From Streptomyces sp. TG1A-8 (GTDB lineage Bacteria; Actinomycetota; Actinomycetes; Streptomycetales; Streptomycetaceae): DNA of 64,000 nucleotides. The notes beneath the pieces are model-generated. The model was not told the DNA's origin, searched no databases, and worked only from the letters and a program-made list of their open reading frames with translations. The stretch spans positions 5,146,001 through 5,210,000 of the forward strand of contig NZ_JASTLB010000001.1 in assembly GCF_030499535.1 (NCBI RefSeq), read 5' to 3'. The position numbers were made by a program, and so were the translations under genes. Within the stretch, counting starts at the first letter, position 1; every line of letters begins with the position of its first letter. Below, in pieces: positions 11,577 to 43,502 of the stretch.

Positions 11577-11693
11577 GGTCATGAGTGACAGTCATGCGGC
11601 CCCGGCCGACTGTCCGGCAACCCTCCGTCCGTGGCGGGGTGCCCCGGGTGAAGACCAGGTCGCGGACAACACCGTCCGTGACAAGCGCGGACC
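11577..11693 (+). promoter_or_regulatory. SAM-IV riboswitch
   Basis: S-adenosylmethionine aptamer of the actinobacterial SAM-IV class. It aligns by eye along its whole length with the SAM-IV sequence I remember from Mycobacterium. P1 is GGTC 11577-11580 with GACC 11690-11693. P2 is formed by GACAGTC 11587-11593 with GACTGTC 11608-11614. The core GGCAACC, the segment GGGGTGCCCCGGGTGA and the 3' ACAAGCGCGG block are all present. The region 11417-11876 otherwise holds only the trpD terminator and a six-codon ORF. It lies in the leader of the SufS-like gene at 11877, which fits control of sulfur metabolism by SAM. Confidence 0.94.
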
Positions 11694-31857: not shown

Positions 31858-33078
31858 GTGCCCAGGGGCGAGCGGGTCGTGAGGATGTCGGTCGAACTGC
31901 CGCTGTGGCGTGCGCTGGCCGGCTACCGGGTGCTGGCGATGCTCTACGCCATCGGCCTGTGCGCCACCGCGTACGGCCACTTCGTGCGCCCCTGGATCGC
32001 CGTCGCCTACTACGCCGTCCTGGTCGTGTGGACCCTGGCCACGCTGCCCAGGGTGGCGGACGCGGCCAGGTGCACCAGGGGCCTCCTCGCCGCCGACCTG
32101 GCCGTGGCCCTCGCCGGTGTCCTGCTGACCCCGCTCGCCGACGACCACGAGCGGATCGCGGGCGGCGGCCCCACCCTGCCGTCGATATGGACCGCGGGCT
32201 CGGTGCTGGCCTTCGCCGTCAAGGGCGGCTGGCGCTGGGCCGCCGTCGCCTCCACGGCCGTCGCCGCCGCCAACCTGGTCGAGCGCGGCGGCCCCGCCCG
32301 GGACACCGTGCACAACGTCGTCCTGGTCTGGGTGGCGTCCATCGCCATCGGCTACGTCGTGGAGGTCGCCCGGGCCTCCGAGCGCACGCTCGCCCGTGCC
32401 CTGGAGATCGAGGCCGCGACCCGGGAGCGGGAGCGGCTGGCCCGCGACATCCACGACGGCGTGCTGCAGGTGCTGGCGATGGTGCAGCGGCGCGGCGCGG
32501 TCCTCGGCGGCGAGGCGGCCGAGCTGGGACGGCTGGCCGGGGAGCAGGAGGTGGCGCTGCGCACGCTGGTCTCCGGCGGGCTGCTGCCCGTCCCCCGCCC
32601 GCCGCGGGGGACGGGCGCCGCGGCGGCCGCCCGCGCGGCCGGGGAGCCGGACGACGACGGCCCGCTCGACCTGCGCACCCTGCTCGCCCCTCACGCGGGC
32701 GCCCGGGTCGCCCTGGCCGAGCCCGGAGCGCCGGTGCCGCTGCCGCCGGCGACGGCCCGGGAGCTGGCCGCGGCGGTGACGGCGGCGCTGGACAACGTGC
32801 GCCGGCACGCGGGGCCGGGCGCGCGGGCCTGGATCCTGATCGAGGACGAGCCGGACGCCGTCGTCGTCACCGTCCGCGACGACGGGCCCGGCATCCCGGA
32901 GGGCCGGCTCGCCCAGGCCGAGGGCGAGGGCCGGCTGGGCGTGGCCCAGTCGATCCGGGGGCGCCTGCGCGACCTGGGCGGCAGTGCCGAGCTGGTCTCG
33001 GTCCCCGGCCAGGGCACGGAAGTCGAGCTGACGGTACCGAGGAGCGCCGAGCGGGCGCGGGGGAGGGCGGAGCGCTGA
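31858..33078 (+). CDS. macS: sensor histidine kinase, MacS-type
   Basis: 406 residues. About five N-terminal membrane helices (about 20-165) are followed by a HisKA_3 dimerisation domain with the phospho-acceptor His199 in RLARDIHDGVLQVLAMV, then HATPase with ALDNVRRHAG (N box), DDGPGIPEG (G1) and GVAQSIRGRLRDLGG. The pair corresponds by position to SCO2121/SCO2120, described in S. coelicolor as MacRS, a regulator of membrane protein genes in development. GTG at 31858; GTG 31879 and ATG 31885 are alternatives. Its stop overlaps the macR start (TGATG). Confidence 0.88.
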   Translation: MPRGERVVRMSVELPLWRALAGYRVLAMLYAIGLCATAYGHFVRPWIAVAYYAVLVVWTLATLPRVADAARCTRGLLAADLAVALAGVLLTPLADDHERIAGGGPTLPSIWTAGSVLAFAVKGGWRWAAVASTAVAAANLVERGGPARDTVHNVVLVWVASIAIGYVVEVARASERTLARALEIEAATRERERLARDIHDGVLQVLAMVQRRGAVLGGEAAELGRLAGEQEVALRTLVSGGLLPVPRPPRGTGAAAAARAAGEPDDDGPLDLRTLLAPHAGARVALAEPGAPVPLPPATARELAAAVTAALDNVRRHAGPGARAWILIEDEPDAVVVTVRDDGPGIPEGRLAQAEGEGRLGVAQSIRGRLRDLGGSAELVSVPGQGTEVELTVPRSAERARGRAER

Positions 33079-33755
33079 TGACACAGCGGCAGGACCCGAT
33101 CAGGGTCATGGTGGTCGACGACCACCCGATGTGGCGCGACGCGGTCGCGCGGGACCTGGCCGAGTCCGGTTTCGAGGTGGTCGCCACCGCCGGCGACGGC
33201 GAGCAGGCGGTCCGCCGGGCCGGGGCGGCGGCCCCCGACGTCCTCGTGCTGGACCTCAACCTGCCGGCCAGGCCCGGTGTCCAGGTGTGCAAGGAACTGG
33301 TCGCCCGCAACCCCGCCCTGCGCGTCCTGGTGCTGTCCGCGAGCGGCGAGCACGCCGACGTCCTGGAGGCGGTGAAGTCCGGCGCGACGGGCTACCTGCT
33401 GAAGTCGGCGTCCACGGAGGAACTGCTCGACGCGGTGCGCCGCACGGCCGCCGGCGACCCGGTGTTCACGCCGGGGCTGGCCGGACTGGTGCTCGGCGAG
33501 TACCGGCGCCTGGCCTGCGAGCCCGCGCCGGCGCCCGGCGCCGGCGGTCCGGGGGCGCCCCGGCTCACCGGGCGGGAGACGGAGGTGCTGCGGCTGGTGG
33601 CCAAGGGCCTGAGCTACAAGCAGATCGCCGAACGCCTCGTCATCTCCCACCGCACGGTCCAGAACCACGTGCAGAACACCCTCGGCAAACTCCAGCTGCA
33701 CAACCGGGTGGAGCTGGTCCGGTACGTGATCGAACGCGGCCTCGACGACGAGTAG
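33078..33755 (+). CDS. macR: NarL/FixJ-type response regulator, MacR-type
   Basis: 225 residues. Receiver with phospho-acceptor Asp59 in VLVLDLNLPARPG, Lys in GYLLKSAS, and a C-terminal LuxR-type helix-turn-helix (LTGRETEVLRLVAKGLSYKQIAERLVISHRTVQNHVQ, residues about 155-190). ATG at 33078 directly coupled to macS. Partner of the adjacent kinase; target genes are not visible in the window. Confidence 0.92.
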   Translation: MTQRQDPIRVMVVDDHPMWRDAVARDLAESGFEVVATAGDGEQAVRRAGAAAPDVLVLDLNLPARPGVQVCKELVARNPALRVLVLSASGEHADVLEAVKSGATGYLLKSASTEELLDAVRRTAAGDPVFTPGLAGLVLGEYRRLACEPAPAPGAGGPGAPRLTGRETEVLRLVAKGLSYKQIAERLVISHRTVQNHVQNTLGKLQLHNRVELVRYVIERGLDDE

Positions 33756-33765
33756 CGCGGGGGGC

Positions 33766-33788
33766 GCCGTGCCCGCGGCGGGCACGGC
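33766..33788. terminator. hairpin between macR and trpEG remnant
   Basis: Inverted repeat with 11-bp arms (33766-33776 with 33778-33788) centred on one base, between the convergent ends of macR and the anthranilate synthase remnant. Confidence 0.7.
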
Positions 33789-33803
33789 CGCCGGGGCCCC
33801 CGG

Positions 33804-34825
33804 TCACCCCGCCGTGCGCGCCCCGCGCAGCGCGCCGATCAGTTCCCGCACGACCGCCGCCCCGTTCAGGGTCAGCACCGACTCCGGGTGGAACCGCACC
33901 CGGCGAACCCGGGACCCCGCAGGGCGTGCACCTCGCCGTTCCCCGCCCGGCTCACCTCCACCCCGCGCGCGGCCAGTTCCAGGGCCGCCTCCTCGTCGCA
34001 GCGCGCCACGAAGCTGGGGTAGAAGCCGACGGTCTCCGCCCGCCCGAACAGGCCGACCGGGACCTGCGCCCCCTGGTACGGCACCTGCTTGCGGACGATT
34101 CCCAGCCCCAGCTCGGCCGCGATCAGCTCGTGCCCGAGGCAGACCCCGAGCACCCCGTGCCGGTGCTCGCGCACCACCGCGGCGGTCAGGTCCCGCAGGA
34201 GGCGCATCCTCGGGTCGGCGGGGTCCGAGGGGTCCCCCGGGCCGGGGCCGAGCACGACCGGCCCCTCGTGCCCCAGTGCCGCGCGCCGCAGCCCCGGCTC
34301 GTCGTACCGCCGCACGGTCACGTCCAGCCCGCCCGAGCGCAGCACGTGCGCCAGCATCGCCGTGAACGTGTCCTCGCCGTCCACGACCAGGGCGTGTCCG
34401 GCCGGTCCGGGCGCCGGCTCCCGCATCCGCAGCCAGAACGGCGCGAGCCGGGCGCGCCGCCCGTCCAGCGCGGCCCGCACCCGGGGATCACCGGCGAGGC
34501 GGGGGCGCTCCCGCTCCGCGCGCGGCCGGGACGGCCGCACCCCGAGCGCGGCCGGGACGCCCACCGCCTTCGCGTGGGTCTCGGCCACCTCGCCCGCCGG
34601 GTCCGAGCCGCGCACGAGGGTCGCGCCGACCGGGACGCGCAGCCGGCCGTCGGCGAGGATGTCGGCGGTGCGGATCAGGATGGGGGAGTCCAGGGTCTGC
34701 GCGCCCCCGGGGCCGCGCCCGAGCAGCGCCAGCGCGCCCGCGTAGTAGCCGCGCCCGCCGGTCTCGTGCCGCTCGATCACCCGGCAGGCGTTCTGCACCG
34801 GCGACCCGGTGACGGTAGAGGGACG
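33804..34825 (-). pseudogene. remnant of fused anthranilate synthase trpE(G)
   Basis: Reads on the minus strand from a junction near 34825. It begins with the last part of the TrpE chorismate-binding domain (TVTGSPVQNACRVIERHETG, TLDSPILIRTADI, VPVGATLVRGSDPAGEVAETHAKA) and continues into a class I glutamine amidotransferase domain (ALVVDGEDTFTAM, VVLGPGPGDPSDP, GVCLGHELIAAELG). About the first two-thirds of TrpE are missing, with no start codon at the junction. Near 33899-33901 one base appears lost: the frame ends as FAGCGSTRSRC-stop, while the next frame reads VRFHPESVLTLNGAAVVREL to a stop at 33804. The catalytic His and Glu of HPES are thus out of frame. The frameshift alone could be a sequencing error; the 5' loss cannot. 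Confidence 0.85.
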
Positions 34826-34841
34826 GGACTTCCGAGAACGC

Positions 34842-34868
34842 CGAAGGCCGCCCCTCGGGCGGCCTTCG
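34842..34868 (-). terminator. trp attenuator hairpin
   Basis: Perfect 12-bp stem (34842-34853 with 34857-34868) with a three-base loop, downstream of the trp leader peptide on the minus strand. A competing antiterminator exists: GGCCGCC at 34896-34902 (within the leader ORF end) can pair with the GGCGGCC at 34858-34864 of this stem. This is the standard logic of transcription attenuation by ribosome stalling. Confidence 0.85.
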
Positions 34869-34889
34869 CGAAGTCTTGGGTACGCGCAG

Positions 34890-34949
34890 TCAGCGGGCCG
34901 CCGGAGAAGCGGTCCACCACCAGGTGTTCTGGAGCGGCTGCGTGAACAT
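34890..34949 (-). CDS. trpL: trp operon leader peptide
   Basis: 19-residue ORF MFTQPLQNTWWWTASPAAR with three consecutive Trp codons. ATG at 34949. TAGGGT (complement of 34957-34962) lies seven bases before the ATG and there is no ribosome site, so the leader is most likely translated from a leaderless transcript. Stalling at the Trp codons would favour the antiterminator. A trp attenuator before a fused trpE(G) gene is known from S. venezuelae. Here the regulated gene downstream is broken. Confidence 0.9.
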   Translation of the reverse strand: MFTQPLQNTWWWTASPAAR

Positions 34950-35034
34950 GGCGCGAACCCTACCCCACCGCACGCCGTCCACCGGACCATCACGTCGTCT
35001 CACCTTTCGGGCCGGGCCGAAATCGGACGACACG

Positions 35035-35055
35035 ACCCCGTAGTGTTTACGGGGT
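35035..35055 (+). promoter_or_regulatory. palindrome over -10 and start codon of DAHP synthase gene
   Basis: Perfect 8-bp inverted repeat ACCCCGTA / TACGGGGT (35035-35042, 35048-35055) with a five-base centre. It spans the -10 hexamer TAGTGT (35041-35046), the expected transcription start and the GTG at 35054. It could be an operator for a repressor or a small 5' hairpin in the mRNA. Confidence 0.55.
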
Positions 35056-36406
35056 GACCGTGAACGCTAAGACCAGCCCGAGCGCTGGCAACACCTGGCG
35101 AGACCTGCCCGCGGCGCAGCAGCCCGAGTACCCCGACCCCGAGGCTCTGCGCGCAGTGATCGCGGAGCTCGAGTCGTATCCGCCGCTCGTCTTCGCGGGC
35201 GAGTGCGACCAGCTGCGCGCCCGGATGGCGGCCGTCGCCCAGGGAGAGGCGTTCCTCCTCCAGGGCGGCGACTGCGCGGAGGCCTTCGACGCGGTGTCCG
35301 CCGACCAGATCCGCAACAAGCTCAAGACGTTGCTCCAGATGGGCGCCGTCCTCACCTACGCGGCCTCGGTGCCGGTGGTGAAGGTGGGCCGGATCGCCGG
35401 CCAGTACTCCAAGCCGCGGTCCAAGCCGACCGAGACCCGTGACGGCGTGACGCTGCCGGTGTACCGGGGCGACTCCGTCAACGGCTTCGACTTCACCCCC
35501 GGGTCCCGCATCCCGGACCCGGAGCGGCTCAAGCGGATGTACCACGCCTCGGCCTCCACGCTGAACCTGGTGCGCGCCTTCACCACCGGCGGCTACGCCG
35601 ACCTGCGCCAGGTGCACGCCTGGAACCAGGACTTCGTGAAGTCCTCGCCCTCGGGCCAGCGCTACGAGCAGCTCGCGCGGGAGATCGACAACGCGCTGCA
35701 CTTCATGCGGGCCTGCGGCACCGACCCGGAGGAGTTCAAGACCGTCGAGTTCTTCTCCTCGCACGAGGCGCTGCTGCTGGACTACGAGTCGGCCCTCACC
35801 CGCGTCGACTCCCGCACGGGGCAGCTGTACGACGTCTCGGCGCACATGGTGTGGATCGGCGAGCGCACCCGGCAGCTGGACCACGCGCACGTCGAGTTCG
35901 CCTCCCGGATCCGCAACCCGATCGGCATCAAGCTCGGCCCGTCCACGACGGCCGAGGAGGCGCTGCAGTACGTCGAGCGCCTCGACCCCGGCCGCGAGCC
36001 GGGCCGGCTGACCTTCATCGTCCGCATGGGCGCCGACAAGATCCGCGACAAGCTCCCCGAGCTGGTCGAGAAGGTCACGGCGTCCGGCGCGGTGGTGGCC
36101 TGGGTGGCCGACCCGATGCACGGCAACACCTTCGAGGCGGCCTCCGGGCACAAGACCCGCCGCTTCGACGACGTGCTGGACGAGGTCAAGGGCTTCTTCG
36201 AGGTCCACAAGGGCCTGGGCACCCACCCGGGCGGCATCCACGTGGAGCTGACCGGCGACGACGTCACCGAATGCGTGGGCGGCGGCGACGAGATCTTCGT
36301 CGACGACCTGCACCAGCGCTACGAGACGGCCTGTGACCCGCGGCTGAACCGCAGCCAGTCCCTCGACCTGGCGTTCCTCGTCGCGGAGATGTACCGGGAC
36401 CAGTGA
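35054..36406 (+). CDS. aroH: class II 3-deoxy-7-phosphoheptulonate synthase
   Basis: First step of the shikimate pathway, condensing PEP and erythrose 4-phosphate. 450 residues of the plant-like class II type; matching segments include LLQGGDCAEAF, KVGRIAGQYSKPRS, YRGDSVNGFDF, FFSSHEALLLDYE, SAHMVWIGERTRQLD, GIKLGPST, IVRMGADKIRDKLP, VAWVADPMHGNT and GGIHVELTGDDVTEC. GTG at 35054 follows TAGTGT by seven bases and has no ribosome site, so the mRNA is probably leaderless. It is divergent from the trp leader, linking two aromatic loci. Confidence 0.96.
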   Translation: MTVNAKTSPSAGNTWRDLPAAQQPEYPDPEALRAVIAELESYPPLVFAGECDQLRARMAAVAQGEAFLLQGGDCAEAFDAVSADQIRNKLKTLLQMGAVLTYAASVPVVKVGRIAGQYSKPRSKPTETRDGVTLPVYRGDSVNGFDFTPGSRIPDPERLKRMYHASASTLNLVRAFTTGGYADLRQVHAWNQDFVKSSPSGQRYEQLAREIDNALHFMRACGTDPEEFKTVEFFSSHEALLLDYESALTRVDSRTGQLYDVSAHMVWIGERTRQLDHAHVEFASRIRNPIGIKLGPSTTAEEALQYVERLDPGREPGRLTFIVRMGADKIRDKLPELVEKVTASGAVVAWVADPMHGNTFEAASGHKTRRFDDVLDEVKGFFEVHKGLGTHPGGIHVELTGDDVTECVGGGDEIFVDDLHQRYETACDPRLNRSQSLDLAFLVAEMYRDQ

Positions 36407-42122: not shown

Positions 42123-43279
42123 GTGGGCAGCTCCGTGAGGACGGCGCCGAAACGCTTCGGCGTGAACGGGCGGGCCTCCTGCGGCAGCTCACCGGTGAGC
42201 AGCGCGTGCGCCAGGGCGTCACCGGTGACCGGGGTGAGCAGCACCCCGTTGCGGTAGTGCCCGGTGGCCAGCAGCAGCCCGTCCAGACCGCAGGGGCCCA
42301 GCAGCGGCGCGTTGTCCGGGGAACCGGGGCGCAGTCCGGCCCGGGTCTCGGTCAGGGGCAGCTCGGTGATCCCCGGCACCAGCTCGTGGGCGTCGCGCAG
42401 CAGCGCGTACACGCCGCCGGCCGTCACGGTCGTGTCCCAGCCCAGCTCCTCGCTGGTCGCGCCGACGACCAGCTCGCCGTTCTCCCGGGGCACCAGGTAG
42501 ACCTGGCTGCCGCGCACCACGGCCCGCACGGTGCGGCTCAGGAACGGCGCGTACCGGCGCGGCACCGTCAGCCGCAGCACCTGGCCCTTCACCGGCCGCA
42601 CCGCGGGCAGGACCTCGTCCGGGACGCCCGCCAGGCGCCCGCTCAGGCTCCCGGCCGCCAGCACCACCTGTCCGGCGGCCAGCCCGGTGCCGTCCGCCGT
42701 GGTGACACCCGAGGCGCGCCCGCGCACCACGTCGAGGCGCTCGGCCCAGGACCGGTGGAACACCACCCCGGCCCGCTCGCAGGCGGCCAGCAGCGCCGCC
42801 GCGAGCCGCCGCGGGTCCACCTGGTGGTCGCCGTTGACCCGCAGCCCCCCGCGCACCCCGGGCGCGAGCATCGGCTCCAGCCGCCGGCACTCCCGGCCCG
42901 ACAGCCACACCGACTCCAGGCCCGCGCGCCGCTGGAGGGCGTGCAGTTCGCGCAGCTGGGCGCGGTCGTCGGCGTCCAGCGCGACGGCGAGCGTGCCGCA
43001 GCGGCGGTAGCCGAGGTCGTGGCCGGTCAGCCCGGTCAGCTCGGCCGTGAAGTCCGGCCAGCGGCGGACGGACTCCAGGTTGAGGGCGAGCAGGGTCTCC
43101 TCGCCGTAGTGCAGCTCCGAGACCGCGGCCAGCATCCCCGCCGCGACCCGCGCGGCCCCGCCGCCGGGCTCAGGGTCCACCACGGCCGCGGCGAGCCCGC
43201 GCTGCGCGGCCCGCCAGGCCGTGACCAGGCCGATGATCCCGCCCCCGATGACGAGGACGTCGGACGTACGTGACGACAT
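42119..43279 (-). CDS. thiO: glycine oxidase
   Basis: FAD enzyme that makes dehydroglycine for the thiazole ring. 386 residues: N-terminal FAD motif VLVIGGGIIGLVTAWRAAQRG, RVAAGMLAAVSELHYGEE, and the C-terminal segment LLLATGHYRNGVLLTPVTGDALA. ATG at 43279, directly behind a TPP riboswitch. First gene of thiO-thiS-thiG. Confidence 0.95.
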   Translation of the reverse strand: MSSRTSDVLVIGGGIIGLVTAWRAAQRGLAAAVVDPEPGGGAARVAAGMLAAVSELHYGEETLLALNLESVRRWPDFTAELTGLTGHDLGYRRCGTLAVALDADDRAQLRELHALQRRAGLESVWLSGRECRRLEPMLAPGVRGGLRVNGDHQVDPRRLAAALLAACERAGVVFHRSWAERLDVVRGRASGVTTADGTGLAAGQVVLAAGSLSGRLAGVPDEVLPAVRPVKGQVLRLTVPRRYAPFLSRTVRAVVRGSQVYLVPRENGELVVGATSEELGWDTTVTAGGVYALLRDAHELVPGITELPLTETRAGLRPGSPDNAPLLGPCGLDGLLLATGHYRNGVLLTPVTGDALAHALLTGELPQEARPFTPKRFGAVLTELPT

Positions 43280-43292
43280 GGGCGTCCAGCCC

Positions 43293-43380
43293 CTCCCTTC
43301 GCCGGCATGACCCGGATCAGGTTCGTACGGTCGGAGGCCGCCAGCCTCCCTCTCAGCCCGGTGCGTCCGGGCTCCCGCGA
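43293..43380 (-). promoter_or_regulatory. TPP riboswitch (THI element)
   Basis: Read on the minus strand: GGGAGCCCGG, GGGCTGAGAGGGAGG, an eight-pair variable arm, CCGTACGAACCTGATCCGG and GTCATGCCGGCGAAGGGAGG. These are the invariant CUGAGAG, ACCUGAUC and GCGnAGGGA blocks of the thiamine pyrophosphate aptamer. It ends about 13 bases before the thiO ATG, so it most likely sequesters the ribosome site (GGGAGGGG) when TPP is bound. Confidence 0.96.
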
Positions 43381-43502
43381 GTGCTCGTGCGTGGCCACCC
43401 TAGCCCGCGGGGCGCGCCACCCGTAAGGGAGCCCGCCCCCCGGGCGGCGGCCGGCGGGACGTCCGGTGCGAGCGGTGCGGAACGGGTCACGGAGCACGCC
43501 CG

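What the first reader, a model, noticed from the sequence alone, without database searches (positions are those of the whole stretch)
34842..34949. Intact trp attenuator preserved in front of a dead gene
A leaderless 19-codon leader with Trp-Trp-Trp, a seven-base antiterminator pairing and a perfect 12-bp terminator are all present, while the anthranilate synthase gene they should regulate is truncated. Either the loss is very recent, or the attenuator now controls something else, for example a small regulatory RNA released by termination. Attenuated Streptomyces leaders can act as separate short RNAs.
Basis: partly seen in the sequence, partly recalled or inferred. Interest (0 to 1): 0.72.

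Follow-up and report, generated by a model that had tools for sequence, protein, structure and literature searches.

The report
Orphaned tryptophan attenuator before dead gene
A well-known tryptophan-sensing switch of Streptomyces is still intact in front of a recently broken, apparently redundant anthranilate synthase gene, and nothing found here suggests that it has taken on a new job.

Summary
On the minus strand lie a -10 box (34962-34957), a leaderless-type 19-codon ORF MFTQPLQNTWWWTASPAAR* (34949-34890), an antiterminator arm GGCGGCC and a 12-bp terminator (34868-34842). It is the standard Streptomyces trpE attenuator, matching trpL1 of S. lividans (PMC8079986, passages). In 20 of 20 relatives read at full length the leader precedes an open TrpEG fusion.

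Here TrpEG is dead: a deletion of about 950 bp net removed its start and about 301 codons, and a frameshift follows. No row printed from 392 genus genomes shares the breakpoint. The remnant evolves faster than orthologues (omega 0.35 against 0.19), suggesting inactivity over about 5-37% of its branch. An untouched attenuator is then within chance (rough P 0.05-0.67). The genome keeps trpE, trpC, trpB, trpA, a TrpG/PabA and a second TrpEG-like gene.

No downstream gene was captured. Of six genomes with a readable locus but no TrpEG orthologue, five lack the leader and one has a decayed one. Recent loss is supported; a new function or small RNA is not.

The parts
34957..34962 (-). -10 box TAGGGT, 7 nt before the leader ATG
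   Evidence: TAnnnT within 20 nt of the ATG in 74 of 76 leaders
34890..34949 (-). leader ORF, 19 codons and TGA, MFTQPLQNTWWWTASPAAR*
   Evidence: orthologous leaders; trpL1 in PMC8079986
34896..34902 (-). antiterminator 5' arm GGCGGCC, pairs with 34864-34858
   Evidence: present in 76 of 76 leaders
34842..34868 (-). terminator hairpin, 12-bp stem, 3-nt loop; its 5' arm holds GGCCGCC
   Evidence: 7-bp core in 76 of 76
34816..34817 (-). deletion junction: about 954 bp net missing relative to G016 (5' UTR end, start, about 301 codons)
   Evidence: all printed matches start here
33804..34816 (-). trpEG remnant: end of the chorismate-binding domain and most of the GATase domain, frameshift within 33890-33910, former stop 33806-33804
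35054..36406 (+). divergent class II DAHP synthase gene, intact; anchor of the locus
33081..33755 (+). convergent response regulator gene (macR-like), ends 48 bases from the remnant's former stop

Best explanation
This is the ordinary ribosome-mediated trp attenuator (trpL1) of Streptomyces, left as an orphan by a recent, lineage-specific loss of the trpEG gene that it controlled. Inherited mechanism (inferred from relatives and literature): transcription starts at or next to the leader ATG; a ribosome stalled at the three Trp codons lets GGCGGCC pair with GGCCGCC in the terminator arm and transcription goes on; with enough Trp the ribosome reaches the stop, the terminator forms and transcription ends. 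In this genome read-through yields only a remnant of about 1 kb without a start codon. The gene was dispensable (inferred) because trpE with other trp genes, a TrpG/PabA and a second TrpEG-like gene remain. The switch is intact because too little time has passed for it to decay. Shown: the anatomy, the deletion and frameshift, orthology, the redundancy in genes. Inferred: transcription, leaderless start, dispensability, age.
For: Every attenuator element present and conserved in 76 leaders. Intact open TrpEG after the leader in 20 of 20 relatives read at full length. S. lividans trpL1 is described as leaderless with three Trp codons before trpE. Only residues 299-608 of 637 match here; deletion and frameshift. 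Breakpoint unshared in every printed row of a 392-genome search. Omega 0.352 against 0.194, bootstrap difference 0.161 (0.040 to 0.304), estimated dead fraction of the branch 0.20 (0.05 to 0.37). Remaining trp genes. Leader lost or decayed in six genomes without the TrpEG orthologue.
Against: At the upper age estimate the chance that about 50 critical bases (my figure) stayed untouched is only about 0.05, so some retained use is not excluded. The omega method is crude (pairwise counting, no tree model), and an earlier run with duplicate loci gave an interval touching zero (-0.004 to 0.272). No expression data. The deletion was not checked against reads or other strains of the species. trpD and trpF were not looked for.
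Confidence: 0.87

Rival explanations
1. The attenuator is kept because its terminated leader RNA or its leader peptide acts in trans, as reported for the trp leader of Sinorhizobium.
For: All functional bases are intact; trans-acting trp leaders exist elsewhere (PMC7298713, listing and start of abstract).
Against: Of six genomes with a readable locus and no TrpEG orthologue, five show no leader and one a leader without start and stop codons. Intactness is within chance for most of the age range. Targets were not searched for.
Confidence: 0.05
2. The attenuator now gates antisense transcription into the convergent gene macR.
For: The remnant's former stop is 48 bases from the macR stop on the other strand, and the deletion moved the promoter about 950 bp closer.
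Against: Proximity only. In 12 of 47 loci that show both macR and TrpEG, pfkA was likewise not found between them, so macR facing TrpEG is not special to this strain. Terminators between the two genes were not examined.
Confidence: 0.03
3. The truncation or the frameshift is an assembly or sequencing error and trpEG is intact in the organism.
For: Reads could not be inspected; the base at the frameshift lies in a run of G.
Against: The genome is in 4 contigs with completeness 100; the break is a clean deletion of about 950 bp; the remnant also shows raised omega.
Confidence: 0.04

Closest known systems
trpL1-trpE attenuator of Streptomyces lividans TK24 (PMC8079986, passages read)
   Same: 18-codon leader MFAHSTRNWWWTAHPAAH with three Trp codons, leaderless transcript, hairpin terminator, single anthranilate synthase gene downstream
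   Different: Here the downstream gene is truncated and frameshifted; the leader has one more codon and a different N-terminal half, a part that varies among relatives
trp attenuators of Streptomyces spp. predicted by Seliverstov et al. 2005 (PMC1262725, passages read); S. venezuelae trp attenuator (Lin et al. 1998, seen only as a citation there)
   Same: Double or triple UGG codons and competing GC-rich terminator and antiterminator with complementary triples gGCC-rGCy-GGCC
   Different: Those attenuators precede trp genes taken to be functional
rnTrpL/peTrpL of Sinorhizobium meliloti (PMC7298713, search listing and start of abstract only)
   Same: A trp attenuator leader
   Different: A trans role is reported there; none is supported here

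Membership tests
Ribosome-mediated trp attenuator of Streptomyces (trpL1) | short leader ORF with consecutive Trp codons close to the promoter | tested here: met
   19 codons, Trp-Trp-Trp, ATG 7 nt after TAGGGT
Ribosome-mediated trp attenuator of Streptomyces (trpL1) | antiterminator arm in the leader ORF complementary to the terminator 5' arm | tested here: met
   GGCGGCC/GGCCGCC, 7 bp; present in 76 of 76 leaders
Ribosome-mediated trp attenuator of Streptomyces (trpL1) | GC-rich terminator hairpin after the leader | tested here: met
   12-bp stem; no dense T run
Ribosome-mediated trp attenuator of Streptomyces (trpL1) | a functional tryptophan gene downstream | tested here: not met
   trpEG remnant without start and first 301 codons, frameshifted: an orphaned member
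Ribosome-mediated trp attenuator of Streptomyces (trpL1) | tryptophan-dependent termination in the cell | not testable with these tools
   needs RNA end mapping
Trans-acting attenuator RNA or peptide (rnTrpL/peTrpL type) | leader kept independently of the structural gene | tested here: not met
   of six genomes lacking the TrpEG orthologue at a readable locus, five have no leader and one a decayed one; a young role in this strain alone is not excluded
Trans-acting attenuator RNA or peptide (rnTrpL/peTrpL type) | targets in trans | not tested
   no target prediction was run

The most novel reading that the evidence does not exclude
After losing its gene, the intact trp leader persists in this lineage as a tryptophan-dependent small RNA or peptide acting in trans, or as an antisense switch on macR: a cis attenuator set free to become a regulator of its own.
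Probability: 0.06. Interest if true: 0.65.

Novelty: new member of a known kind. Interest (0 to 1): 0.2.

Why it matters
It is a clean natural example of a regulator outliving its gene. The window shows an attenuator soon after gene loss, G008 shows one that has begun to decay (start and stop codons gone, hairpin kept), and five further genomes show neither gene nor leader. That pattern argues that Streptomyces trp leaders are kept for their gene and not for a role of their own, which is useful to anyone listing leader RNAs as candidate small RNAs. Otherwise it is ordinary.

Tried and rejected
Rejected: a captured new downstream gene (no minus-strand gene before macR). A translated C-terminal fragment (no Shine-Dalgarno-like motif before the starts printed; the frameshift comes before the end of the GATase domain). 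A chance match (76 orthologous leaders). The minus-strand ORF 34993-33872 of 373 aa as a gene: it starts upstream of the inferred transcript start and runs through the leader in another frame. Covariation in the terminator, which I first read: anchored on the conserved core, shows that most of it was a register shift.

Led nowhere: Rfam (no family here); consensus promoter and terminator scan (none); plasmid records (5 records, no place covering 80% of the query; four listed as DAHP synthase, one without annotation); named relatives (best MacS-like kinase match 85%, records of the own species may be left out by the tool). The draw, centred on G016, is nearly the same set of genomes as and is no independent sample. 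The omega run held duplicate loci; one search removed them.

Not done: a calibrated RNA model, structure prediction, target prediction, a search for trpD or trpF, and a leader search over all 392 genus genomes (the leader query went to 100 relatives, 61 of the genus with the own genome, and to 27 selected genomes).

Full report
What is there. The minus strand of 34842-34962 carries a complete trp attenuator: -10 TAGGGT, an ATG 7 nt downstream, a 19-codon ORF with three consecutive Trp codons, the arm GGCGGCC inside the ORF, and a 12-bp hairpin with a 3-nt loop whose 5' arm holds the complementary GGCCGCC. The single-sequence fold finds the hairpin, but the energy is not exceptional (z -1.64; 14 of 200 shuffles as good). 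No dense T run follows it, and the element matches no Rfam family at gathering score.

It is real and orthologous. A 145-base query matched 62 of 100 genomes; of the 60 other genomes of the genus 57 matched and three (G001, G028, G050) did not; the G010 match covers only 31 bases and the G008 match is a decayed leader. Of 81 loci scanned with a pattern demanding ATG and Trp-Trp-Trp, 76 gave a leader; L070, L079, L083, L090 and L104 did not, and five further loci with odd or cut leaders (L063, L065, L067, L069, L071) were not given to the scan. The 76 include the window and may hold a species twice. The pattern selects for ATG and Trp codons, so those counts are by construction; the stop TGA (76 of 76), GGCGGCC before the stop (76), the TAnnnT box (74) and the terminator core GGCCGCC/GGCGGCC (76) are not. 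Covariation is slight: anchored on the core, two-sided changes are 2 C-G and 1 G-C in place of A-T and 5 A-T in place of G-C. In 20 of 20 relatives fetched at full length an open reading frame of 631 to 712 codons carrying the GATase motif follows the leader, and it matches TrpEG over nearly its whole length. In S. lividans the orthologue trpL1 is described as leaderless, with three Trp codons, before a monocistronic trpE (PMC8079986, passages). Classical trp attenuators in Streptomyces were predicted in 2005, where the S. venezuelae one is cited as experimentally studied (PMC1262725, passages). The kind is known.

The gene is dead. Against the 637-aa TrpEG of G016 the window matches only residues 299-608 at 85% identity. 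In G016 979 bases separate the terminator from the point where homology resumes; here 25 do. The start codon and about 301 codons are gone, and a frameshift within 33890-33910 spoils the end of the GATase domain. In a search of 392 genus genomes with the 1161-base leader-plus-remnant query 374 matched at E 1e-100 or better, and every row printed begins at the breakpoint base (query 145, window 34816), so no printed relative shares the deletion; rows beyond the print limit were not seen. The best printed match is 86% identical, so no close relative was available to date the event tightly.

When. On 305 remaining codons, with 59 relatives held and the 10 nearest by Ks used, omega is 0.352 for the window branch and 0.194 pooled for the others; bootstrap difference 0.161 (0.040 to 0.304). 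If dead codons evolve neutrally, the gene has been inactive over about 20% (5 to 37%) of its branch. An earlier run with duplicate loci gave a difference interval touching zero. For 50 critical bases (my figure) the chance that none was hit is about 0.67, 0.21 and 0.05 at the low, middle and high age. Intactness is compatible with drift; at the upper age it would be mildly surprising.

Why it could be lost. The genome keeps a trp cluster (trpE, Trp_oprn_chp, trpC, a PALP-family trpB-like gene, trpA; five of eleven ORFs picked in L187 were searched), with trpE above its NCBIfam cut-off; a TrpG/PabA above its cut-off; and a second TrpEG-like gene, 58% identical, beside a class II DAHP synthase, an AMP-binding enzyme and an MFS transporter (eight of twelve ORFs searched), which looks like a specialised-metabolite cluster (inference). 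No TGGTGG occurs on the coding strand upstream of trpE in L001, so no leader of this type was seen there. trpD and trpF were not looked for.

Does it do something else? The leader transcript meets no minus-strand gene before macR, which ends convergently at 33755. Gene losses elsewhere are the best test. Among 392 genus genomes I rechecked the 27 with the weakest or no TrpEG match, the own genome included. Six others have a readable DAHP synthase orthologue and no TrpEG orthologue: G008, G184, G207, G311, G327 and G379; G184, G207 and G311 carry a 53-55% identical TrpEG-like gene instead. Five of the six show no leader by short-word BLAST beyond 12-13-base matches in two (parts printed). G008 keeps the Trp codons and the hairpin but not the leader start and stop, with pfkA next door. 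G151 keeps a leader near a contig end and cannot be judged; G028, G118 and G050 gave no DAHP synthase match and G001 only a 65% one. So the leader goes with its gene, which speaks against an independent role in the genus, though not against a very young one in this strain.

Literature. Searches covered an open-access library only and, apart from the two papers named, were read as listings. They showed me no Streptomyces trp leader acting in trans and no orphaned trp attenuator; the 12 papers shown of 65 were on orphan riboswitches. That is weak evidence of absence.

Verdict. Observation confirmed; recent loss supported; second function unsupported; an ordinary relic of a known attenuator.

Noticed in passing
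window 31858-35054: The locus macS-macR-pfkA-trpEG-DAHP synthase lacks pfkA here. Of 47 relatives' loci showing both macR and TrpEG, 35 have pfkA and 12 do not. Two other PFK genes exist in the genome.
   Followed up: partly
L063 / L167 (G008): A second, independent loss of trpEG with a decayed leader: Trp codons and hairpin kept, start and stop codons gone, pfkA now adjacent.
   Followed up: partly
L188 (G000:C1:1757000-1775000): A second TrpEG-like gene beside a class II DAHP synthase, AMP-binding enzyme, MFS transporter and a molybdopterin oxidoreductase; possibly a chorismate-derived metabolite cluster.
   Followed up: partly
L065 (G426): A trp leader with only two Trp codons before a TrpEG gene, so three are not needed throughout the genus.
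   Followed up: no
G241:C55:260932-264330: The TrpEG match is in two pieces about 1.5 kb apart (residues 9-460 and 462-632), as if something lies between the TrpE and TrpG parts.
   Followed up: no
window 11577-11693 (+) and 43277-43388 (-): SAM-IV and TPP riboswitches at Rfam gathering score.
   Followed up: no
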